Source: Calditerrivibrio sp. (GTDB taxonomy: Bacteria > Chrysiogenota > Deferribacteres > Deferribacterales > Calditerrivibrionaceae). Taken from it: a stretch of DNA of 59,932 nucleotides. The notes beneath the pieces were generated by a model. That model was given only the letters and a program-made list of their open reading frames with translations. It did no database searches and was not told where the DNA came from. The translations under genes and the position numbers were made by a program. The stretch is from positions 1 through 59,932 of the forward strand of contig JAOAHS010000011.1 in the NCBI GenBank assembly GCA_026415135.1, written 5' to 3'. Below, one piece after another: positions 28,906 to 59,055 of this stretch; within the stretch, counting starts at the first letter, position 1; every line of letters starts with the position of its first letter.

Positions 28906-28928
28906 GCGGGGTTATACCCCGCATTTTT
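28906..28928. terminator. Rho-independent terminator after rpsI
   Basis: GCGGGG (28906-28911), loop TTATA, CCCCGC (28917-28922) followed by ATTTTTAT. The stem lies between rpsI and the convergent isochorismatase-like gene, whose stop is at 28927-28929, so it may act on both strands. Confidence 0.8.
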
Positions 28929-29475
28929 ATTCTTTGATAATCCTAAGGGCTTCTTTAAATTCGTCTGTTCCGCCTTTTTCAAGTAGCTGGAAAATAACAG
29001 TTTCCGTGTTTGTGATGATAGCGCCTGCGTTTTCTAAATATCTCAGGGCATTTTTCCAATTATATTTTTTTGTGGAGAGTACGGCATCTGAGACAATAAA
29101 AACTTTGTAATCGGAATCCAATAGATCCAAAGCGGTTTGAAGTACACAGACATGGGATTCCATACCGCTGATGATCACGTTAGGATTGTCGGTGTTGAAA
29201 TAATCGAAAAATCCCTCTTGTCTAACTGCAGAGAAATAGATCTTTTCAAAGTATCGATTTCCTAAGATATCGGTAATCTCTTTTACTGTATTACCGAGCC
29301 CATTTGTATAGTGTTGGGTGATAAAATAGGGGAGATTTAAAAGTTTTGCTATTTTGGCAAGCTTGATAATATTGCGCAGTTTTTCATGGTATATAAGACT
29401 ATCCATGGCTGGGACTAACTTTTCTTGAATATCAATAAATAACAATGAGCTGTTGTTTAATTTTGGGAAAAACAT
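28927..29475 (-). CDS. Isochorismatase-like (cysteine) hydrolase family protein
   Basis: The 182-aa product has the family layout: a catalytic Asp in LLFIDIQEKLVPAM (YcaC-like), then TQHYTNGLGNTVKEI, and the nucleophile region ISGMESHVCVLQTALDLL with the cysteine in the conserved H-V-C-V context. The lysine normally found in the triad region is replaced locally by FSAVRQEGF, so catalysis should not be assumed to match a specific nicotinamidase or isochorismatase. It is the last gene of an operon with a hybrid kinase and a solute-binding protein (one-base overlap with the kinase). Confidence 0.82.
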   Translation of the reverse strand: MFFPKLNNSSLLFIDIQEKLVPAMDSLIYHEKLRNIIKLAKIAKLLNLPYFITQHYTNGLGNTVKEITDILGNRYFEKIYFSAVRQEGFFDYFNTDNPNVIISGMESHVCVLQTALDLLDSDYKVFIVSDAVLSTKKYNWKNALRYLENAGAIITNTETVIFQLLEKGGTDEFKEALRIIKE

Positions 29476-31943
29476 CAGTGTTTACCTCCAAATTTTAAAA
29501 AGATCTGCTTTAATCTTTTTTGGTCATAAGGTTTTGGTAAGAAGTCAAAAAAACCATATTCAGGATAATGTTCCATTAAATCGCTATCGGTATAGCCGCT
29601 CATGACAACAGCTTTTACATCTGGGTCTATGGTCTTAATCTTTTCCAAAGCATATTTTGCACCTTTCCCAAGAGGAACTGTAATGTCAAGGAAAATAAGG
29701 TCAAACTTATTCTGATGTTTTAATGCATCTAAATAAAGCTCATAAGCCTCATCACCATTTTCTGCTATTGCAACTTTACATCCGAAAGCTATCAATAAAA
29801 GCTCCAAAGAGTCTCTGACGAAATACTCGTCATCCATAATCAATACGTTATAGTTAAAGGTAACATCTGTTATATTATTTTTGTCAAATTGGGGTGTGGG
29901 ACACTTATCGCTTGAAGGTAGATAAATGGTAAACGTAGTACCTACACCCTCTTGAGTATCGATTGATATAAGACCGTTGTGCTTTTCTATGATCGATTTC
30001 GTAATATAAAGTCCAAGACCACTGCCGGTTTCTTTTGTGGTAAAAAAGGGTTGAAACACTTTATCCAAGTACTTTTGTGGGATACCTGGGCCATTATCCT
30101 TTAATACTATTTTTACAAATGGTATGTTGGTGGAATAGAGGGGTTCTAAAGAGATCGATACATCAAGGGTACCACCTTCAGGCATTGCCTGTTTCGCGTT
30201 TAATAAAAGGTTGTGGAAGACTTGTGCTATGAGGTTCTGATCCCCTTTAACATAACAGTACTGTTGGGATTTTGAAATATTGAAAAAAATGGTAGTACCA
30301 CTTAAAACGAATCGGGCAGTTTCTGATATGAGGCTGTAGATATCGATGTCTTGTAAGGCGATATGTTCTCCCCCTTTAGATAATACAAGTAGACGGTTTG
30401 AAAGAAATTTGCCCCTTTCACACAGAGTAATAATCTGATCAGCAAACTCCTGTATCTGGGGATTTTGATCGAAGGTCAATCTTGCCACTAACATATAGTT
30501 ATTTATTGCTGAGAGTATATTGTTAAAATCGTGTGCTATTCCACCTGCAACCAGACCTATTGTTTCAATCTGCTGTTTTCTTATCATCTCCTTCTTAAAT
30601 TTTTCTTTGTCGGTATCATCCCTGAAGATTAAAACACCCCCTTTGACCTCATCCCCTACAATTATGGGAGCAGCTGAGTCTGATATAATCCGTTTATCAC
30701 CATTTTTTGTTTTAAGGCTTGTATTATTGGAGATTTCAATGATGGTTCTATTTTGTAAAGCTTTTAGTAAGGGGTTTTCTACAGGTTGATTGGTAACCTC
30801 ATTGTGTATTACAAAGATCTCGGATATATGTTTACCGATTACCTCAGAAAATGAATAGCCTGTGATAGCTTCTGCTGCCTTATTAAATAATTCGATGTTG
30901 CCACTTTCATCTGTAACAATTACACCATCACCTATGCTCATGATAGTTATATATAGTTCATCACGAAGGGACTTTATTGTATTAAATGAATTTACAAGAT
31001 TTAAAGCAACGGTTCTTAGTTCATTGTCAGGAAATTTTGATATATCAAGAACTGTATCGGATGTAGAAGCAGAATTGGAAAAATCTTTAAGAGCTACTAT
31101 GGGCTTGGATATATAACTGGATAGGTATTTAGCAATTAAAAATAGTAGAATAAGATATATGGTTATGATAAAGCCCACTTGGATATAAATCCTATTTAAA
31201 TCAGCATTGATCACTTTAGATGAGATATTTATTCCAAAGATCAGATCGTTATCTCTTACTAAGTACACATAGTTAATATCTTTTTCATCTTTTTCATTCG
31301 GGAAAGGGAAAAGTCCATAGACGATACGCTCTTTGTTTTTAAAGAACTCTAACTCGGCTATGGAGATATTTTTCAAATAGATGGTGGGGTTTGTATGAAA
31401 AATTATTCTACCATCCATTTCTGCGATAAAAAAATTTTGACCATCCATTTGAAAATAGATATTTTCAAATAGTTTTCTAATGGAGTATCGATATATGACT
31501 GTCTGACCATTTGGTAAGAGGTGGGAGAAGTATATGAGTATATCGTTATCTATTATTTGAAATTTATCATTAGGAATATTGAGCTTTTCCCCTTTTTTAA
31601 TGTAGTAGAACCTTGATTCACCATCTAAAATAACATTATCGCTATTTACTATGTAGATATCATAAAGTTCTTTTATCTTGAATATAAAATATTTTATATC
31701 ATCCTGTAAGTGACCATATTTGAGTAACGTATTGATAAGTCTTTGGGGTATTCTACTTTTTGCAAAATCGATCTGACTTCTTAGATCTTTGTTAACCTGT
31801 GAAATCTGGTTGTATGATATATTGTTGTACTGTTCGTAGATATTGTTTTGCATTAAAAGTATGAATAAAATAGCTATAAAAAGAAGCGGGATTATGCTGT
31901 AAAAGAGCAGCTTTTTAAAAATATCTGTTGTTATCTTCATCAT
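29475..31943 (-). CDS. Membrane hybrid sensor histidine kinase with PAS and receiver domains
   Basis: The 822-aa protein has a membrane helix near residues 11-29, an extracytoplasmic sensor to about 248, and a second helix (VGFIITIYLILLFLIAKYL). These are followed by a short HAMP-like segment, a PAS domain (about 330-450; IELFNKAAEAITGYSFSEVIGK), and HisKA with GGIAHDFNNILSAI. The HATPase has NLLLNAKQAMPEGG, DNGPGIP and GSGLGLYITKSI. A C-terminal receiver domain has LIFLDITVP as the phosphoacceptor and PKPYD. No separate response regulator with an output domain is adjacent, so the downstream target is unknown. The start overlaps the stop of the solute-binding-protein gene (ATGA). Confidence 0.92.
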   Translation of the reverse strand: MMKITTDIFKKLLFYSIIPLLFIAILFILLMQNNIYEQYNNISYNQISQVNKDLRSQIDFAKSRIPQRLINTLLKYGHLQDDIKYFIFKIKELYDIYIVNSDNVILDGESRFYYIKKGEKLNIPNDKFQIIDNDILIYFSHLLPNGQTVIYRYSIRKLFENIYFQMDGQNFFIAEMDGRIIFHTNPTIYLKNISIAELEFFKNKERIVYGLFPFPNEKDEKDINYVYLVRDNDLIFGINISSKVINADLNRIYIQVGFIITIYLILLFLIAKYLSSYISKPIVALKDFSNSASTSDTVLDISKFPDNELRTVALNLVNSFNTIKSLRDELYITIMSIGDGVIVTDESGNIELFNKAAEAITGYSFSEVIGKHISEIFVIHNEVTNQPVENPLLKALQNRTIIEISNNTSLKTKNGDKRIISDSAAPIIVGDEVKGGVLIFRDDTDKEKFKKEMIRKQQIETIGLVAGGIAHDFNNILSAINNYMLVARLTFDQNPQIQEFADQIITLCERGKFLSNRLLVLSKGGEHIALQDIDIYSLISETARFVLSGTTIFFNISKSQQYCYVKGDQNLIAQVFHNLLLNAKQAMPEGGTLDVSISLEPLYSTNIPFVKIVLKDNGPGIPQKYLDKVFQPFFTTKETGSGLGLYITKSIIEKHNGLISIDTQEGVGTTFTIYLPSSDKCPTPQFDKNNITDVTFNYNVLIMDDEYFVRDSLELLLIAFGCKVAIAENGDEAYELYLDALKHQNKFDLIFLDITVPLGKGAKYALEKIKTIDPDVKAVVMSGYTDSDLMEHYPEYGFFDFLPKPYDQKRLKQIFLKFGGKH

Positions 31944-32935
31944 TTTATCACTCTATCAGCATAAGAATAGTATAGTTTGTTAAAAGGCATTTTTAATTTT
32001 GAAATAGCAGTTTCGTTTATGTATAGCTCCATATAATTGGGTAGTTGTATAGGCAGATACTTAGGATTGATCCCCTTTAATAGAAGATCGAGGTAATATG
32101 ATGCCTGAATCCCGTCGTTATAAAAGGATTGGGAATATGCGATGGTTGCACCTTTTTTTACAAGATAAGTGTCAATAGCCATTATCGGTACTGCATACTT
32201 TTCAGCTAATTTTTTGATTTGTTCAAAATGTCTTACTGAGAAAGCGGAGGGTGCCATGAAGATACCGGTGGATGATGGATCTTCTATATGATATCTTGAA
32301 AAGATTTCTTTGTTATAGATAGGTGATAATATTACTTCTAAACCCAATTGTTGGGCAAAGGGAGTATACTCATTTAAATGTTTTTCCAAAAAAGTTTCTT
32401 CAAGTCCATAGAAAATGATGATCGTTTTAATGTTTGGAAAAGCATCTTTAAAAATCTGGATCCTTTTTTTATATGTTACAAAAGCAGCTCTTGATGGTCC
32501 GACAAAATTTGTGCCGGAGAGTTTTTTATCAAGGGATAATTTGCTTTCTATAGGGGAAGCAATCTGGTTATAAACAACAAAAAAATCAAACTTGCTGTTG
32601 TATTCTTTTATCTTGTGTGTTAGAGGGGTGGTTGTAGAGTAGATGATCTTTATACCTTTTTCGTGAAACCTTTTTAGTGTTGGTTCTACGAGGTTTAGAT
32701 CACCATTTATATTAACGATATCAAAATCCACATGGTTGTGTCCAGTTTTTTTCAAGCCATCTTGAAGACCTAAAAAACTTTCTCTAAATTCTTCCGAGAA
32801 AAGTAAAACACCTACTAAATGGCGCTTGGAGTCGGAATTAGAGGTAGTCTGACTTAAGACTAAAATGATAACAACAGATAAGAGAAATACGCTGAGTAGT
32901 AAAACCCTTTTTTTATTTAAAGAAATATATTTCAT
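31940..32935 (-). CDS. ABC-type solute-binding protein of the PF04392 (ABC_sub_bind) family
   Basis: The 331-aa product starts with an uncleaved-looking signal anchor (KKRVLLLSVFLLSVVIILVLS). The remainder is a two-lobe Rossmann-like binding protein: GVLLFSEEFRESFLGLQDGLKKTG, IIYSTTTPLTHKI, GIFMAPSAFSVRHFEQI and GATIAYSQSFYNDGIQASYYLDLLLKG are typical of this family. No permease or ATPase gene is next to it. Instead it is overlapped by a hybrid histidine kinase gene, so I infer it presents a ligand to that kinase rather than importing a nutrient. The ligand cannot be predicted. Confidence 0.85.
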   Translation of the reverse strand: MKYISLNKKRVLLLSVFLLSVVIILVLSQTTSNSDSKRHLVGVLLFSEEFRESFLGLQDGLKKTGHNHVDFDIVNINGDLNLVEPTLKRFHEKGIKIIYSTTTPLTHKIKEYNSKFDFFVVYNQIASPIESKLSLDKKLSGTNFVGPSRAAFVTYKKRIQIFKDAFPNIKTIIIFYGLEETFLEKHLNEYTPFAQQLGLEVILSPIYNKEIFSRYHIEDPSSTGIFMAPSAFSVRHFEQIKKLAEKYAVPIMAIDTYLVKKGATIAYSQSFYNDGIQASYYLDLLLKGINPKYLPIQLPNYMELYINETAISKLKMPFNKLYYSYADRVIK

Positions 32936-32941
32936 ATAGTA

Positions 32942-32969
32942 ATTTTAACAGAGAATCGCTTTTTGTCAA
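32942..32969 (-). promoter_or_regulatory. Putative sigma-70 promoter of the solute-binding protein/kinase operon, leaderless geometry
   Basis: On the minus strand TTGACA (32969-32964) and TAAAAT (32947-32942) are 16 bases apart. Exactly six bases separate the -10 from the ATG at 32935, and there is no ribosome-binding site. This predicts a transcript that starts on the start codon. Confidence 0.55.
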
Positions 32970-41957: not shown

Positions 41958-44900
41958 ATGAGAATCAAAAAGCTTATGTGTGCAAACCGTGGTGAGATAG
42001 CGATAAGGGTGTTCCGTGCATGTACAGAGCTGGGGATAAGAACGGTTGCCATATATTCGGATGAAGATAGATATTCTCTACATAGATATAAAGCAGATGA
42101 AGCTTATTTGGTAGGTAAGGGGTTGGATCCGATTGCTGCATATATGAATATAGAAGAGCTTGTAGACTTAGCCAAAAAGCATCATATAGATGCCATTCAT
42201 CCTGGTTATGGCTTTTTGGCTGAGTCCTACGAGTTTGCTGAGGCCTGTCAAAAAAATGGGATCATATTTGTTGGGCCTGATCCAAATACTATGAAGATAT
42301 TTGGAGACAAGAAGCTTGCTAAAGATCTTGCAAAAGAGTGTAAAGTGCCAGTGATTGAAGGATCTGAAGGGGTTGTGGGTGATTTAGCTGAGGCTGAGAA
42401 GATTGCAGAAAAGATTGGATACCCAGTTTTATTAAAAGCTACAGCTGGTGGTGGTGGCAGGGGGATTAGGATATGTAAAAATAAGAAGGAACTCGAAGAG
42501 AATTTTGAATCAGCCATGAGAGAGGCTATAAAAGCCTTTGGCAAGGGTGATATTATCATAGAAAAGTATATAGAAAACCCCAAGCATATTGAAATTCAGT
42601 TGCTAGGTGATAAGCATGGAAATATGGTTCATCTGTATGAGAGGGACTGTTCCATTCAAAGAAGACATCAAAAACTTATAGAGATTGCACCATCCCTGAA
42701 TATCCCTTATGAGACTCTGAAAAGGTTATATGATGATTCGGTACGATTAGGTAAAGCTTCAGGGCTTTTTTGTGCAGCTACAGCTGAGTTTTTGGTGGAT
42801 AGTAAGGGTAATCACTATTTTCTTGAGGTCAATCCGAGAATACAGGTGGAGCACACCGTTACTGAGTTGATAACTGGGATAGATATTGTTCAGGCCCAGA
42901 TTCTGGTTTCTGAAGGTAAACAGTTGAGTGACAAAGAGATAGGTATTACATCCCAGGATAGTATCTACAAACACGGGTATGCGATACAGTGCAGGGTCAC
43001 TACGGAGGATCCAGAAAACAATTTTCTTCCTGATACGGGTGAAATAGAGGCTTATAGGATAGCTACAGGGTTTGGTATAAGATTAGATGCAGGTAACGGC
43101 TTTGCAGGTGCTAAGATTACACCCCATTACGATTCTTTACTCGTAAAGGTATGTAGTTGGGCTACCACATTTGAGCAGGCGGCTAAGAAGATGAACAGGG
43201 CTTTAAGTGAGTTCAGGATCAGGGGTGTGAAGACCAATATACCTTTTTTGCAAAACGTCATAACTAACAAGGATTTTTTAAGTGGGAATTTCCATACAAA
43301 CTTTATAGACGACAATCCAGAACTGCTGAAGTTTCCTAAGCCTCAGGATAGGGCAACCAAAGTATTAAAGTTTCTGGCAAACAATATTGTAAACAACCCA
43401 TCTGGAGTGAAACTTAGTGAAAACACTGTGCTACCTCCTATCAGAGTACCTGTGATAAAATTCGGAGAGCATGTCCCAACAGGGACCAAAGATCTACTCA
43501 ATCGGCATGGGGTAGAAGGGGTGATCGATCATATAAAGAAAAGTAAAGAGGTGCTCTTTACTGATACCACTATGAGGGATGCCCATCAGTCTCTACTTGC
43601 CACAAGGCTAAGAACAAAGGATATGCTGGCCATAGCTGATGCTTATGCTCATCACATGAGTGGATTATTCTCTTTGGAGATGTGGGGTGGAGCAACCTTT
43701 GATGTATCTTATAGATTTTTGAAAGAGTCACCGTGGGAAAGATTAAGGTTGTTAAGGGGAAAGATCCCCAATATCCTCTTTCAGATGCTTCTTAGAGGTT
43801 CTAATGCTGTGGGGTATACCAACTATCCTGATAATGTTATCAAGGAGTTTATAAGGCTTTCTGTAAAAAATGGTATAGATGTTTTCAGAATATTTGACTG
43901 TTTTAACTGGATCGACCAGATGCTTCTCGCCATAGAGGAGGTCAAGAAGAATGACAGGATTGCTGAAGCTGCTATATGCTACACCGGAGATATTTTGGAT
44001 CCAAAAAGGGTAAAATATAGCCTTAAATATTATGTGAATCTGGCAAAAGAGCTTGCAAACGCAGGCACAGATATCATAGGGATAAAAGATATGGCTGGGC
44101 TTTTGAAGCCTTATGCTGCAAAGGTTCTTGTGAAAGCTATAAAAGAGGAGACAGGTCTTCCCCTTCATTTTCATACCCATGATACAAGTGGTAATGGTGA
44201 GGCATCGGTTCTTATGGCAATAGAGGCTGGTGCTGATATTGTGGATTGTGCCATCTCTTCCATGAGTGGCTTGACCAGTCAGCCCAATCTTAATTCTATA
44301 CTTTATGCCATAGAGTCTACGGAGAGAAGATCCTCCATAGATAAACAGTGGGCCCAGAATATTTCCGACTACTTTGAGAGGGTCAGAAGGTATTACTTCC
44401 CCTTTGAAAGTGGATTAAAATCAGCAACTGCTGAGGTCTATGAGCATGAGATCCCCGGAGGTCAGTATTCAAACCTTGTGGTACAGGTAGAGGCTACTGG
44501 ATTATTGGATAGATGGGAAGATGTAAGGAAGATGTATGCAAAAGTCAATAAAGAGTTAGGTGACATAGTGAAGGTTACGCCATCATCAAAAGTTGTAGGT
44601 GATCTGGCCATATTTTTGGTGAGAAATAATCTGGATATATCAGATTTGTATGAAAAGGGGGGGCAGCTATCACTACCGGAGTCTGTTATATCGTTTTTCA
44701 AAGGGATGTTAGGTCAACCCTACGGTGGCTTCCCAGAAAAGCTACAGCAGATTGTTTTAAGGGGGGAGAAACCCCTTAAAGGGCGTCCAGGGGAGCTTTT
44801 ACCACCCTTCGACTTTCAGAAGGCAAAAGAAGATCTCGAAAAGGAGTTTGGCAGGCCTTTCAGCGAGGAGGCTGTAGTTAGTTATGCCCTTTATCCACAA

Positions 44901-45392
44901 GTATTTAAAGATTATATAAACTTTGTGAATGAATATGGTGATGGGATGGTATTTGATACAAAGGATTATTTCTATCCCCTAAAGAAAGAGGAGGAGATTG
45001 AGGTCAATATAGAGGAAGGGAAAACCCTTATCATAAAGTATTTAGGTGTTAGTGAGCCTGATGAAAAAGGATTTAGAAAGGTGTACTTCGAGTTTAATGG
45101 TCAGGCACGGACAGTAAGGATCAAAGATGAAAAGCTCTCAGATTATATAAAATCAAATAAGAAAGGTGATTTGAATAATCCAAAGGATGTTTGTGCCTCT
45201 ATGCCCGGGAAGATCACCAAGATCAACGTGAAAAAGGGTGATAAGGTCAAAAAAGGTGATCTACTTGTGATCACTGAGGCTATGAAGATGGAGACTAAGA
45301 TTGTAGCTAACACCGATGGAGTAGTAGAAGAAATTTATCTAAATCAAGGAGATAAGATAGAAGCCGGTGACCTTTTAATAAAGATCGCTTGA
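41958..45392 (+). CDS. pyc: Pyruvate carboxylase
   Basis: This 1144-aa single-chain enzyme makes oxaloacetate from pyruvate, bicarbonate and ATP. Residues 1-450 are the biotin carboxylase domain (ANRGEIAIRVFRACTELG, the ATP-grasp loop KATAGGGGRGIRI, FLEVNPRIQVEHTVTE). The carboxyltransferase domain follows from about 530 (LFTDTTMRDAHQSLLATR, metal ligands in LHFHTHDTSGNG). The C-terminal biotin carrier has EAMKMET with biotinylated Lys1110. The order and length fit the alpha4 pyruvate carboxylase class rather than the two-subunit archaeal type. It stands alone between its own promoter and a strong terminator. Confidence 0.97.
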   Translation: MRIKKLMCANRGEIAIRVFRACTELGIRTVAIYSDEDRYSLHRYKADEAYLVGKGLDPIAAYMNIEELVDLAKKHHIDAIHPGYGFLAESYEFAEACQKNGIIFVGPDPNTMKIFGDKKLAKDLAKECKVPVIEGSEGVVGDLAEAEKIAEKIGYPVLLKATAGGGGRGIRICKNKKELEENFESAMREAIKAFGKGDIIIEKYIENPKHIEIQLLGDKHGNMVHLYERDCSIQRRHQKLIEIAPSLNIPYETLKRLYDDSVRLGKASGLFCAATAEFLVDSKGNHYFLEVNPRIQVEHTVTELITGIDIVQAQILVSEGKQLSDKEIGITSQDSIYKHGYAIQCRVTTEDPENNFLPDTGEIEAYRIATGFGIRLDAGNGFAGAKITPHYDSLLVKVCSWATTFEQAAKKMNRALSEFRIRGVKTNIPFLQNVITNKDFLSGNFHTNFIDDNPELLKFPKPQDRATKVLKFLANNIVNNPSGVKLSENTVLPPIRVPVIKFGEHVPTGTKDLLNRHGVEGVIDHIKKSKEVLFTDTTMRDAHQSLLATRLRTKDMLAIADAYAHHMSGLFSLEMWGGATFDVSYRFLKESPWERLRLLRGKIPNILFQMLLRGSNAVGYTNYPDNVIKEFIRLSVKNGIDVFRIFDCFNWIDQMLLAIEEVKKNDRIAEAAICYTGDILDPKRVKYSLKYYVNLAKELANAGTDIIGIKDMAGLLKPYAAKVLVKAIKEETGLPLHFHTHDTSGNGEASVLMAIEAGADIVDCAISSMSGLTSQPNLNSILYAIESTERRSSIDKQWAQNISDYFERVRRYYFPFESGLKSATAEVYEHEIPGGQYSNLVVQVEATGLLDRWEDVRKMYAKVNKELGDIVKVTPSSKVVGDLAIFLVRNNLDISDLYEKGGQLSLPESVISFFKGMLGQPYGGFPEKLQQIVLRGEKPLKGRPGELLPPFDFQKAKEDLEKEFGRPFSEEAVVSYALYPQVFKDYINFVNEYGDGMVFDTKDYFYPLKKEEEIEVNIEEGKTLIIKYLGVSEPDEKGFRKVYFEFNGQARTVRIKDEKLSDYIKSNKKGDLNNPKDVCASMPGKITKINVKKGDKVKKGDLLVITEAMKMETKIVANTDGVVEEIYLNQGDKIEAGDLLIKIA

Positions 45393-47351: not shown

Positions 47352-49739
47352 CTAAGCAAATGGTTCGTTTACGTCTGAAATGTTGTATTTGTCTTTAAGT
47401 TTTATAGGTCCTGATATACGCTTGATCCTCACAGCTGCGACTTTGTACTCTGGTTCGAAGGAGCCTGGGTCGATTGCATCGTTGCAAACAAAATTGACCA
47501 TTCTATCCTTGTGTTGATCATGCATTGGGATAAAAAGTATACCCGGCAGCGATTTTTGGGTAACAAGGGCTGGTAGGATTACTTTACCCCTTTTGCTTTC
47601 TACTTCCACCATGTCACCGTTTGTTATGGAATACTTTTTAGCATCCTCAGGATGAATTTCCACATAGGCATAGGGATGTGCGCGGGCTATCTCAGGGATT
47701 CTATTTGTCATTGTACCTGTGTGCCACTGCTCAATTACACGACCGGTGGTGAGGAAGAATGGATAATCTTTATCTGGATTTTCCGCTGCTTCTTTATAGG
47801 GACGCAGGAAGATATTTGCCTTACCCTCATTTTTAGCATCCATATAGAAATAGATCTTTGCATCCGCAGGGATCTTCTTATCAAATTTTTCTAAAAAGCC
47901 CTTGTGTTCGAACATGGGGTCAAGACCTTTTACATACCTTCTCACTGTTCCTGGATGATTTGGGTATGGGCATGGCCATTGTATTCCGGCTTTAGATGCC
48001 TTTAATCTCTCATAGGAGACACCAGCAAAGGTGTGGTCTGTATCTTTTGTTACCCTTGTGTAGTCTTCCCAAGCCATAACACAGGCTTTTTCTATGTCAT
48101 CCATATTCCATGGGATTAGCTTTTCAAGACCCATCCTCTTTGCGATCTGGGCTGCAATCCAGAGGTCTGGTTTGGCTTCACCTGGTGGGTTTAAAGATTT
48201 TTCTGTGTGTTGGCTTCTTCTTTCAGAACATCCATAAACACCACCTTTTTCATATAAAAATGCTGCTGGCAATATTACATCTGCAAACTGAGTGGTTCTT
48301 GTGGGGAATATGTCGATAACCACAAGGAAGGCGTCCTTCATGTTTTTATGATATTTATGGGCATTTGGTAAAGATTGGGCTGGATTTGTGGTGCATACAA
48401 GCATAGCTTTTATTGGCTTTGTGCTATCGTTTTCTGCTCCGAGGCTTTCAAACATTTTGATAGTATGGAAACCTGGTTTTGGATCTATAGTGCCCTCGGG
48501 AAGTCCCCACTCTTTTTCCACATGGGCACGCCACTTGGCATTTGTAACAGGCTTTGTACCCGGCAAAAGATGGCATAAGGCACCAGTTTCTCTTACTCCA
48601 CCACAGGCGTTTGGTTGACCAGTCAAAGAGAAGGGTTCAGCACCGGGATAGCCTATCTGTCCGGTAATAAGGTGTAGGTTGTGCACCAAATTGTTTGCCC
48701 AAACACCCCTTGTCCTCTGGTTAAGTCCCATACACCATAGGGACATTGTGGGCCCGCTTTTGGCGAAAAGCTCCGCTGCTTTTTTAATGTTTTCAGCGGG
48801 ACATCTTGTTGTCTTTTCCACAGCTTCAGGAGTGAACTGTTCCAAAAATTTTACATAATGATCGAAATCGTATACCTTTTCACCATCTGTTATCCGGGTA
48901 TTTGTATCTATAAACTTTTTGTCATGCCACCCATTTTTGATGATCTCCAATGCCATGGCATGGAATATTGCAAGGTCAGTTCCAGGGTCTACTGGTAGCC
49001 ATAGATCAGCGATCTTTGATGTATTTGTTTTGCGGGGCTCACATACGATAACTTTTACCGAAGGATCGGACATTTTGCGCTTCATAATCCTTCTAAAGAT
49101 AATAGGATGTGCTTCGCTGGTGTTGGAACCAACAATGAAGAAGCATTTGGCATGCTCTATATCTTCATAACTACCAATCGGTTCATCTGATCCGTAAGTG
49201 GTGATATATCCTGCAACCGCACTTGCCATACACAGTCTTGGGTTACCTTCCACCATGTTGCTACGGAAACCACCTTTCCAGAGCTTGTTAAAGGTATAGG
49301 TTTCTTCAGTGGTTGCCTGCCCAGAGCCATAGTAGGCAACAGAATCTTTACCATATTTTTCGTGGAAGTATTTAAATTTGTTTGCCACGAGGTTCAAAGC
49401 TTCATCCCAGCTGACCCTTTTGAACTTGCCATCTGCTTGCTTGATCATTGGGTATTTTAATCTGTCTGGATGCTCGATTACTTTATAAACAAGAGCACCT
49501 TTTACACACAAGAATCCGAAGTTAGTTTTGGCTTCGGGGTTGCCTTTTATGGCTACAGCTTTTCCACCTTTTATGCCAAGGTAGATACCACAACCGGTCC
49601 CACAAAATCTACATACCCCTTTAACCCATTTGTCTACCTCTGCGTCTTTTGCGTTGACAGTTTTTGGCAAACTGATTCCTGCAGCTGCTGCTGTAGCTGC
49701 CGCCGCACTAAGCTTTATAAATTCTCTTCTTGTTAACAT
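47352..49739 (-). CDS. napA: Periplasmic nitrate reductase catalytic subunit NapA
   Basis: NapA reduces nitrate to nitrite with a Mo-bis-MGD cofactor. A twin-arginine signal (LTRREFIKLSAAAAT) starts the 795-aa chain. One [4Fe-4S] cluster site is CRFCGTGCG...FLCVKG (about residues 43-82), and the molybdenum-ligating cysteine is in NPRLCMASAVAGY. MopB substrate and cofactor motifs continue to the C-terminal dinucleotide-binding domain (FFLTTGRVIEQWHTGTMTNR). The length is between the monomeric Desulfovibrio NapA and the longer NapAB-type enzymes. An exact GGAGG site lies before the ATG. Confidence 0.95.
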   Translation of the reverse strand: MLTRREFIKLSAAAATAAAAGISLPKTVNAKDAEVDKWVKGVCRFCGTGCGIYLGIKGGKAVAIKGNPEAKTNFGFLCVKGALVYKVIEHPDRLKYPMIKQADGKFKRVSWDEALNLVANKFKYFHEKYGKDSVAYYGSGQATTEETYTFNKLWKGGFRSNMVEGNPRLCMASAVAGYITTYGSDEPIGSYEDIEHAKCFFIVGSNTSEAHPIIFRRIMKRKMSDPSVKVIVCEPRKTNTSKIADLWLPVDPGTDLAIFHAMALEIIKNGWHDKKFIDTNTRITDGEKVYDFDHYVKFLEQFTPEAVEKTTRCPAENIKKAAELFAKSGPTMSLWCMGLNQRTRGVWANNLVHNLHLITGQIGYPGAEPFSLTGQPNACGGVRETGALCHLLPGTKPVTNAKWRAHVEKEWGLPEGTIDPKPGFHTIKMFESLGAENDSTKPIKAMLVCTTNPAQSLPNAHKYHKNMKDAFLVVIDIFPTRTTQFADVILPAAFLYEKGGVYGCSERRSQHTEKSLNPPGEAKPDLWIAAQIAKRMGLEKLIPWNMDDIEKACVMAWEDYTRVTKDTDHTFAGVSYERLKASKAGIQWPCPYPNHPGTVRRYVKGLDPMFEHKGFLEKFDKKIPADAKIYFYMDAKNEGKANIFLRPYKEAAENPDKDYPFFLTTGRVIEQWHTGTMTNRIPEIARAHPYAYVEIHPEDAKKYSITNGDMVEVESKRGKVILPALVTQKSLPGILFIPMHDQHKDRMVNFVCNDAIDPGSFEPEYKVAAVRIKRISGPIKLKDKYNISDVNEPFA

Positions 49740-58330: not shown

Positions 58331-58381
58331 ATTAAAGTGTTAACAATTATTATAAGGGTTTGCAAGAGGAATTTAGCGGAA

Positions 58382-58453
58382 TAGGAGCGAGGGGGATTGA
58401 ACCCCTGACCCTTGCGACGTCAACGCAATGCTCTCCCACTGAGCTACGCTCCT
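58382..58453 (-). tRNA. tRNA-Val (anticodon GAC)
   Basis: Read on the minus strand, the acceptor stem is AGGAGCG/CGCTCCT with discriminator A73. The D arm is GCTC/GAGC, the anticodon stem TTGCG/CGCAA with loop TTGACGT (anticodon GAC), and the T arm AGGGG-TTCAATC-CCCCT. All stems are fully paired and the total is 72 bases. The CCA end is not encoded. The anticodon reads GUC and GUU. Confidence 0.95.
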
Positions 58454-58465
58454 TTACATATATAT

Positions 58466-58494
58466 TACATAAATCACAAACAATTTTTTGTCAA
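58466..58494 (-). promoter_or_regulatory. Sigma-70 promoter of tRNA-Val
   Basis: On the minus strand TTGACA (58494-58489) and TATGTA (58471-58466) are 17 bases apart, 12 bases before the mature tRNA 5' end. It lies back to back with the bacterioferritin promoter. Confidence 0.55.
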
Positions 58495-58499
58495 CTGTA

Positions 58500-58527
58500 T
58501 TGCAAAAAAATAAAGGGTAGTTATAAT
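58500..58527 (+). promoter_or_regulatory. Putative sigma-70 promoter of bacterioferritin
   Basis: TTGCAA (58500-58505) and a perfect TATAAT (58522-58527) are 16 bases apart, followed by AAGGAGG and the ATG at 58552. The -35 elements of this promoter and of the tRNA promoter are only five bases apart, so the two may interfere. Confidence 0.5.
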
Positions 58528-58551
58528 ATAATATATAAAAAAGGAGGTTTT

Positions 58552-59055
58552 ATGCACAAAAAGAGTATAGAGCTTTTGAATAAAGCTATTGCAGAAGAGA
58601 TGACAGCACTACAACAGTATATGTATTTCCACTTCCATTGCGATGATAAGGGGTTGGACCTTTTATCTACGATGTTTAGACAAAATGCTATTCAGGAGAT
58701 GATCCATGTGGAGAGGTTTGCAGAGAGGATCCTGTTTTTAAAAGGTGAAGTGGAGATGAAGGCATCCCAAGAGGTACAAAAGATTACTGATCCAGAAGAG
58801 ATGCTAAAGATGGCACGAAAGCTTGAAGAGGACGCCATAGCACTGTATAACAGATTTGCCAATGAATGTGCTCAAAATGGAGATGCAATGACAAAACAAC
58901 TTTTCGAATCGGTAATAGCGGATGAGGAAAGGCATTACGATGATTTTGACAAGGAAGCTGAAAATGTAGAGATATATGGTAAGGAATATCTTGCTCTACA
59001 ATCTATGGAAAGAGCTAAAAAAAGAAGTACCGCAAAACCAACATTAAATGAGTAA
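58552..59055 (+). CDS. bfr: Bacterioferritin-like iron-storage protein
   Basis: The 167-aa product has the four-helix ferritin fold with di-iron ligands in helices: LLNKAIAEEMTALQQY, QEMIHVERFAERILFL (E..H), LKMARKLEEDAIALYNRFA and SVIADEERHYDDFD (E..H). It best fits bacterioferritin/DPS-like ferritins; I do not see a clear heme-ligating methionine, so heme content is open. The start is ATG at 58552 with AAGGAGG seven bases upstream. A longer frame from 58360 runs through the tRNA and is wrong. A terminator follows. Confidence 0.85.
   Translation: MHKKSIELLNKAIAEEMTALQQYMYFHFHCDDKGLDLLSTMFRQNAIQEMIHVERFAERILFLKGEVEMKASQEVQKITDPEEMLKMARKLEEDAIALYNRFANECAQNGDAMTKQLFESVIADEERHYDDFDKEAENVEIYGKEYLALQSMERAKKRSTAKPTLNE

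What the first reader, a model, noticed from the sequence alone, without database searches (positions are those of the whole stretch)
28927..32935. Solute-binding protein, hybrid kinase and isochorismatase-like hydrolase in one operon
The PF04392 protein has no transporter partners, overlaps the kinase gene, and has a membrane anchor. The kinase has only a receiver output. This looks like a ligand-binding sensor complex with an attached hydrolase, an unnamed combination.
Basis: partly seen in the sequence, partly recalled or inferred. Interest (0 to 1): 0.5.

Follow-up and report, generated by a model that had tools for sequence, protein, structure and literature searches.

The report
Binding protein paired with sensor kinase
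A bacterial binding protein that elsewhere helps import amino acids appears here to work instead as the outer ear of a signalling kinase: its old amino-acid pocket is gone and its gene sits directly before the kinase gene, so it very probably senses a different, still unknown molecule.

Summary
The three-gene operon is real. PF04392 binding protein (31940-32935) overlaps a hybrid kinase (29475-31943) by 4 nt; the kinase overlaps an isochorismatase-fold hydrolase (28927-29475) by 1 nt. Relatives show that the first two genes are a conserved unit: in 20 of 20 evaluable loci from two phylum-level groups, this clade of binding proteins lies directly before a homologous kinase, overlapping or abutting. 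The clade is separate from transporter-linked PF04392 proteins (support 99/97) and persists in two 99%-complete genomes without the PF04392-type permease. Pocket residues that hold amino acids in transport relatives are replaced. The kinase sensor is predicted as a dCache fold. Best reading: a LuxP/LuxQ-like co-receptor with PF04392 in the binding role, for a ligand that is not an alpha-amino acid. The hydrolase looks cytosolic, occurs order-wide, and joins the operon only in this genus (2 of 9 loci in the order), so it is a genus-level addition, not part of the sensor. Physical contact, ligand and output are inferred. New variant of a known kind; moderate interest.

The parts
31940..32935 (-). 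PF04392 (ABC_sub_bind) binding protein, 331 aa, proposed periplasmic co-receptor
   Evidence: Pfam E 1.9e-30; AlphaFold2 model pLDDT 87.2 matches 3lkv Z 32.8, 286 aligned, 2.2 A; 3lft_A Z 32.2; 6hni Z 31.7
32849..32905 (-). N-terminal hydrophobic segment (residues 11-29), anchor or uncleaved signal
   Evidence: mean hydropathy 2.82, no lipobox; helix 6-31 in the model
32489..32491 (-). R149, at the place of the ligand-contact Asp (D152 of S. suis TrpX)
   Evidence: His or Arg in 21 of 21 clade rows, Asp in 25 of 30 transporter-linked rows
31940..31943 (-). 4-nt stop/start overlap (ATGA) of binding-protein and kinase genes
   Evidence: among the 20 pairs (this one included) overlap 4-17 nt in 18 and 0 nt in 2
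29475..31943 (-). hybrid sensor histidine kinase, 822 aa
   Evidence: Pfam; full-length homologue in G001, 54% identity over 826 columns
31194..31847 (-). periplasmic sensor domain (about residues 33-250), predicted dCache fold, flanked by hydrophobic segments 12-30 and 252-270
   Evidence: model pLDDT 77.2; 2p7j_B Z 15.6, 208 aligned, 3.4 A; 3lid_B Z 15.6; segments
30606..30938 (-). cytoplasmic PAS domain (about residues 336-446)
30531..30533 (-). H471, predicted phospho-accepting histidine
   Evidence: HDFNN motif, invariant in 9 aligned kinases; position
29913..30245 (-). HATPase_c ATP-binding domain (residues 567-677)
   Evidence: E 2.6e-24; DNGPGIP and GSGLGL boxes
29502..29846 (-). C-terminal receiver domain (residues 700-814), predicted acceptor D753
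   Evidence: E 1.3e-17; position
28927..29475 (-). PF00857 isochorismatase-fold hydrolase, 182 aa, probably cytosolic; D15, K78, C110 invariant
   Evidence: E 1.2e-23; invariant in 12 of 12 aligned homologues
28906..28922 (.). terminator-like stem between the convergent hydrolase and rpsI genes
   Evidence: 7 pairs, 6 of them G-C
32942..32969 (-). promoter-like TTGACA-16-TAAAAT just upstream of the binding-protein start
   Evidence: 11 of 12 matches; consensus match only

Best explanation
The first two genes make a two-part receptor. The PF04392 protein binds a small molecule in the periplasm, closes, and docks on the tandem-PAS (dCache) domain of the kinase dimer, changing autophosphorylation at H471 and transfer to D753 of the fused receiver, much as LuxP acts on LuxQ. 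Shown here: conserved gene order and gene overlap, common descent of both partners, a clade separate from transporter-linked relatives, loss of the amino-acid pocket, survival without the transporter, and predicted folds. Inferred: physical docking, the direction of the effect, the ligand (probably not an alpha-amino acid; a basic residue stands where the contact aspartate was, so an anion such as a carboxylate is the first guess), and the route from the receiver onward. The hydrolase is a probably cytosolic enzyme, kept order-wide, that in this genus became part of the same operon and may act on a related metabolite; it is not needed for sensing.
For: 20 of 20 evaluable clade members lie directly before a kinase on the same strand, overlap 4-17 nt in 18 and 0 nt in 2. 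Clade support 99/97 in a 40-row tree, SH-aLRT 99 in a 74-row tree. Contact residues named for S. suis TrpX (PMC9382623 passages): D152 is His or Arg in 21 of 21 clade rows and N233 is Asn in 0 of 21; in 30 transporter-linked rows Asp 25, Asn 30. G004 and G011 keep the pair without the permease; G018 has only a broken scrap at E 6e-4. Sensor dCache fold Z 15.6; relatives' kinases hit PF02743 below its cut-off. Binding-protein model closest to 3lkv, 3lft and 6hni, with LuxP (1jx6) at Z 17.1.
Against: No complex was modelled and no binding was tested. PMC11113362 (passages) reports that two binding proteins encoded near AgtS did not bind its sensor domain, so adjacency is not proof. dCache domains often bind ligands themselves. 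The dCache model is moderate (pLDDT 77.2, eight divergent sequences). The pocket-contact list comes from one paper's homology model. No stand-alone Hpt was found in the genome (6 matches, all in open frames of 699 aa or more), so the receiver has no evident downstream partner. Two of 20 kinases lack the receiver (L035, L036).
Confidence: 0.72

Rival explanations
1. The binding protein is an ordinary transport component that uses a permease encoded elsewhere; the kinase merely regulates that uptake.
For: PF04392 proteins with solved ligands are amino-acid binders (PMC6816091 passages); six of the nine genomes with the pair also hold the permease.
Against: In G000 that permease adjoins the canonical PF04392 gene. 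G004 and G011 have the pair and no such permease. Pocket contacts are replaced. A permease of an unrelated family was not searched for.
Confidence: 0.1
2. The kinase senses through its own dCache domain; the binding protein is a co-expressed scavenger or antagonist without direct contact.
For: dCache domains of other receptors bind ligands directly (KinD, DctB and PctA ligand structures among the fold matches).
Against: One-to-one coupling in 20 of 20 loci. LuxQ's tandem domains do not bind the signal directly but through LuxP (PMC8534201 passages).
Confidence: 0.15
3. One reading: the hydrolase is physically attached to the sensor and modifies its ligand.
For: The three-gene order is kept in G000 and G001 although the flanks differ (rpsI/rlmH against surA-like/sprT), so the cassette behaves as a unit there.
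Against: No hydrophobic export segment in the hydrolase; homologues in 36 of 59 genomes, most without the pair; 7 of the 9 genomes of the order with the pair do not have it adjacent.
Confidence: 0.03

Closest known systems
LuxP/LuxQ (Vibrio AI-2 receptor)
   Same: separate periplasmic binding protein plus a kinase with a tandem-PAS periplasmic domain that senses through it (PMC8534201 passages; that LuxQ carries a fused receiver is recalled); LuxP fold match Z 17.1
   Different: PF04392 rather than the LuxP family; LuxQ family score not reached; no stand-alone Hpt found; ligand unknown
TorT/TorS, HptA/HptS, XylFII/LytS
   Same: a binding protein acts on a kinase (PMC8534201 and PMC9602780 passages)
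   Different: other binding-protein families (recalled); TorS sensor is all-helical
TrpX / CD0873 / VC_1101 binding proteins (PF04392)
   Same: family and fold
   Different: TrpX and CD0873 are described as parts of amino-acid import systems; their contact residues are lost here
PF04392 plus dCache-HAMP-guanylate cyclase on Rhizobium plasmids
   Same: PF04392 gene overlapping a dCache receptor gene
   Different: cyclase output; different residues at the contact places

Membership tests
PF04392 ABC_sub_bind | score above the curated cut-off | tested here: met
   106.6 against 25.9 bits
TrpX tryptophan transport binding protein (NF041285) | NCBIfam cut-off 390 bits | tested here: not met
   80.2 bits
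TrpXYZ-type transporter component | permease and ATPase genes beside it | tested here: not met
   permease missing from G004 and G011 altogether
Aromatic amino-acid-binding PF04392 | contacts T108, A127, T129, D152, N233 (TrpX numbering) | tested here: not met
   window has T, Q, A, R, A
Hybrid histidine kinase | HATPase_c, acceptor His, fused receiver | tested here: met
   HisKA itself 19 bits, below 26.9
dCache sensor domain (PF02743) | Pfam score above the cut-off of 45 bits | tested here: not met
   no match in the window kinase at E up to 1; clade relatives 22-36 bits
dCache sensor domain (fold) | tandem PAS fold after a long helix | tested here: met
   predicted model only: Z 15.6, 208 aligned, 3.4 A
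LuxQ (NF041947) | NCBIfam cut-off 1200 bits | tested here: not met
   83.1 bits, residues 242-765 only
LuxP/LuxQ-type receptor mechanism | binding protein contacts the kinase sensor domain | not testable with these tools
   no complex prediction or binding data available
PF00857 isochorismatase superfamily | cut-off score and D-K-C triad (triad recalled) | tested here: met
   84.5 against 27 bits; D15, K78, C110 invariant in 12 of 12
YcaC equivalog (NF041461) | NCBIfam cut-off 310 bits | tested here: not met
   50.7 bits

The most novel reading that the evidence does not exclude
A deep lineage of PF04392 binding proteins has left transport altogether and become a plug-in co-receptor for dCache sensors, with exchangeable outputs (hybrid kinase, plain kinase, nucleotide cyclase) in Deferribacterota, Desulfobacterota-like groups and Rhizobium, each branch with its own altered pocket; the window's branch senses an anionic metabolite, perhaps a 2-oxo or 2-hydroxy acid.
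Probability: 0.35. Interest if true: 0.6.

Novelty: new variant of a known kind. Interest (0 to 1): 0.42.

Why it matters
Only about ten cases of a binding protein acting on a kinase sensor domain are recorded, and 13 of 22 binding-protein families are recorded as interacting with receptors (PMC9602780 passages). PF04392 proteins are normally labelled transport components. If this is right, partner gene and pocket residues together separate signalling from transport members, would correct many annotations, and give a ready set of receptors whose ligands can be screened. It also offers another natural system in which to test how a binding protein drives a tandem-PAS kinase.

Tried and rejected
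The first genome-contig scan, with the window protein alone, found no relative. PF06541 was the wrong permease family and is uninformative (1 of 9 genomes); it was replaced by a protein query. A search for an Hpt relay partner gave only domains in large proteins. The idea that every signalling-linked PF04392 partner carries dCache was rejected: of the 12 loci with a kinase but no dCache match, 11 partners were scanned (L198 left out); PF02743 was not listed for any and 4 hit sCache_4. The idea that a membrane anchor defines the clade was dropped: most relatives show signal-peptide-like N-termini (no dedicated predictor was available). A metabolic clue for the ligand is weak: a 2-oxoacid:ferredoxin oxidoreductase operon lies divergently beside the pair in 9 of 11 evaluable loci of the Tharpella-type group (L071-L074, L199, L201-L204; not L069 or L200; L075 is at a contig edge; families named for L073, the others by matching ORFs), but these genomes are related and the window and G001 lack it. 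LuxQ's own sensor structure was not among the 50 listed fold matches, which excludes nothing. Paper searches for PF04392 or ABC_sub_bind with kinases or cyclases listed no paper on such a pair; a review on binding proteins in signalling (PMC8050422) is not held, so absence from print is not shown. In the 74-row tree six near-duplicate rows were dropped beforehand (K_L036, K_L039, T_L024, T_L029, T_L017, T_L083).
Full report
Observation. Pfam assigns PF04392, a PAS/HATPase_c/Response_reg hybrid kinase and PF00857. The first pair overlaps by 4 nt, the second by 1 nt. The operon is bounded by a terminator-like stem shared with the convergent rpsI gene and by a promoter-like match just before the first gene, the latter no more than a consensus match. 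The window genome has a second PF04392 gene on another contig, followed by a permease homologue.

Is the pair conserved? Among 59 genomes (the window's own included), 36 have some PF04392 match. Nine genomes, again counting the window's own, carry a close orthologue at E 3e-45 or better; the next match is 4e-19. In all nine the next gene is a kinase homologous to the window's. A scan of named genomes with an alignment of six orthologues gave 26 loci. Eight score higher against the window protein than against the transport-type protein; seven of these have the kinase next, and the eighth (L071) stops at its contig end. The other 18 score higher with the transport-type reference or show no labelled gene at that place; ten of them have the permease, nine of those ten the ATPase too. 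Two of the eight (L068, L070) are the same loci as in G018 and G022, judging from contig lengths and gene coordinates. In 297 genomes of the phylum of G060 (Candidatus Tharpella), nine matches stand at E below 1e-100 and the next is 1.9e-56; eight of the nine have the kinase next with a 4-nt overlap and the ninth is the truncated locus. Without duplicates that makes 20 evaluable pairs, 20 of 20 on one strand, overlapping by 4-17 nt in 18 and abutting in two. The receiver is present in 18 of the 20 and absent in L035 and L036.

Is it a separate lineage? In a 40-row tree the 15 kinase-linked rows form one side of a branch with support 99/97. In a 74-row quick tree the 19 kept rows again form one group (SH-aLRT 99). 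One side of a deep branch (also 99) holds this clade with 10 of the 12 dCache-partnered rows, the Rhizobium cyclase-partnered protein and one orphan; the other side holds the 26 transporter-linked rows, 11 rows with other kinases, two dCache-partnered rows and four orphans. The quick tree has long branches that meet, so the deep split needs a fuller analysis.

Is it free of transport? In the nine genomes with the pair, a permease like that beside the canonical gene was found in six at E 4e-125 or better; G004 and G011 (both 99% complete) have none and G018 has a broken fragment at 6.3e-4. A permease of an unrelated family was not looked for.

What does it bind? Solved PF04392 proteins hold tyrosine, phenylalanine and tryptophan (PMC6816091, passages). 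For S. suis TrpX the authors name T108, A127, T129, D152 and N233 as conserved contacts (PMC9382623, passages). Mapped by alignment, the window protein has T103, Q124, A126, R149 and A231. In 21 clade rows T108 is kept in 21, A127 in 2, T129 in 0, D152 in 0 (His 19, Arg 2) and N233 in 0. In 30 transporter-linked rows the counts are 30, 20, 25, 25 and 30. Across all 45 rows linked to signalling (one of them, L071, with its partner beyond the contig end), D152 is Asp in 0 and N233 is Asn in 2. So the partner gene and the pocket go together. That the lost aspartate holds the amino group, and that His or Arg there favours an anion, is inference.

The kinase sensor. Pfam finds nothing above cut-off in the first 330 residues of the window kinase. 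A model from eight sequences (pLDDT 77.2) matches tandem-PAS (dCache) sensor domains, best 2p7j_B and 3lid_B at Z 15.6 over 208 residues at 3.4 A. Relatives' kinases hit PF02743 weakly, below its cut-off. The binding-protein model (pLDDT 87.2) matches the three solved PF04392 proteins at Z 32.8, 32.2 and 31.7 (25.8 for the open form of CD0873), then drops to 18.4; LuxP (1jx6) is at 17.1 and XylFII (5xss_B) at 17.0.

The hydrolase. Homologues occur in 36 of 59 genomes, including G002 of the same genus, which lacks the pair; it adjoins the pair only in G000 and G001. In those two the three-gene cassette sits in different places: beside rpsI in the window, between a surA-like gene and sprT in G001. 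In G001 and G003 rpsI is followed by another gene, and sprT in G000 lies on contig C27 without the cassette beside it. The cassette therefore behaves as a unit within the genus, which makes a shared regulation or pathway likely. The enzyme has no hydrophobic segment and keeps D15, K78 and C110 in 12 of 12 homologues, so it is probably an active cytosolic hydrolase of unknown substrate; the nearest solved sequences are a protein named only 'Isochorismatase family' (8rkz) and MAR1-type proteins.

Mechanism and standing. The most economical account is a two-part receptor of LuxP/LuxQ type, with PF04392 in the role of LuxP. LuxQ's tandem domains do not bind the signal themselves but sense it through LuxP (PMC8534201, passages). 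It is not a LuxQ family member by score. Direct contact, ligand, sign of the response and the route from D753 onward are unproven; the genome shows Hpt domains only in large proteins. Adjacency alone can mislead: PMC11113362 (passages) reports neighbours of AgtS that did not bind its sensor domain.

Wider picture. Of 89 other PF04392 loci examined (88 and L104; windows reaching about 1.5 to 4 kb on either side, some cut by contig ends), 36 were classed as transport, 10 with a dCache partner, 12 with another kinase and 31 as other; two of the 31 (L149, L173) do have a permease beyond the distance rule. PF04392 next to a signalling gene is thus common there, while the window's clade is the one with strict coupling. 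Papers were seen as search listings, abstracts or passages only; none was read whole.

Noticed in passing
L071-L074, L199, L201-L204: The pair in Tharpella-type genomes lies divergently beside a 2-oxoacid:ferredoxin oxidoreductase operon (9 of 11 evaluable loci), a possible ligand clue.
   Followed up: partly
L037-L039: In one Deferribacterales family the pair is divergent from an FAD-oxidase/CCG protein resembling 2-hydroxyacid dehydrogenases; L038 also has indolepyruvate oxidoreductase genes nearby.
   Followed up: partly
L138, L149, L157, L160, L162, L167, L173, L178: Two to four PF04392 domains in tandem next to the permease, mostly in single open frames of about 940 to 1267 aa.
   Followed up: no
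L028, L030: Tandem PF04392 genes (three in a row in L028) without a permease in view in one Deferribacterales family.
   Followed up: no
L053:4851-7647: Rhizobium plasmid gene pair: PF04392 protein overlapping a dCache-HAMP-guanylate cyclase.
   Followed up: partly
window 41958-45392, 47352-49739, 58360-59055: Pyruvate-carboxylase-like protein, molybdopterin oxidoreductase and ferritin/rubrerythrin-like protein by Pfam; ordinary.
   Followed up: no
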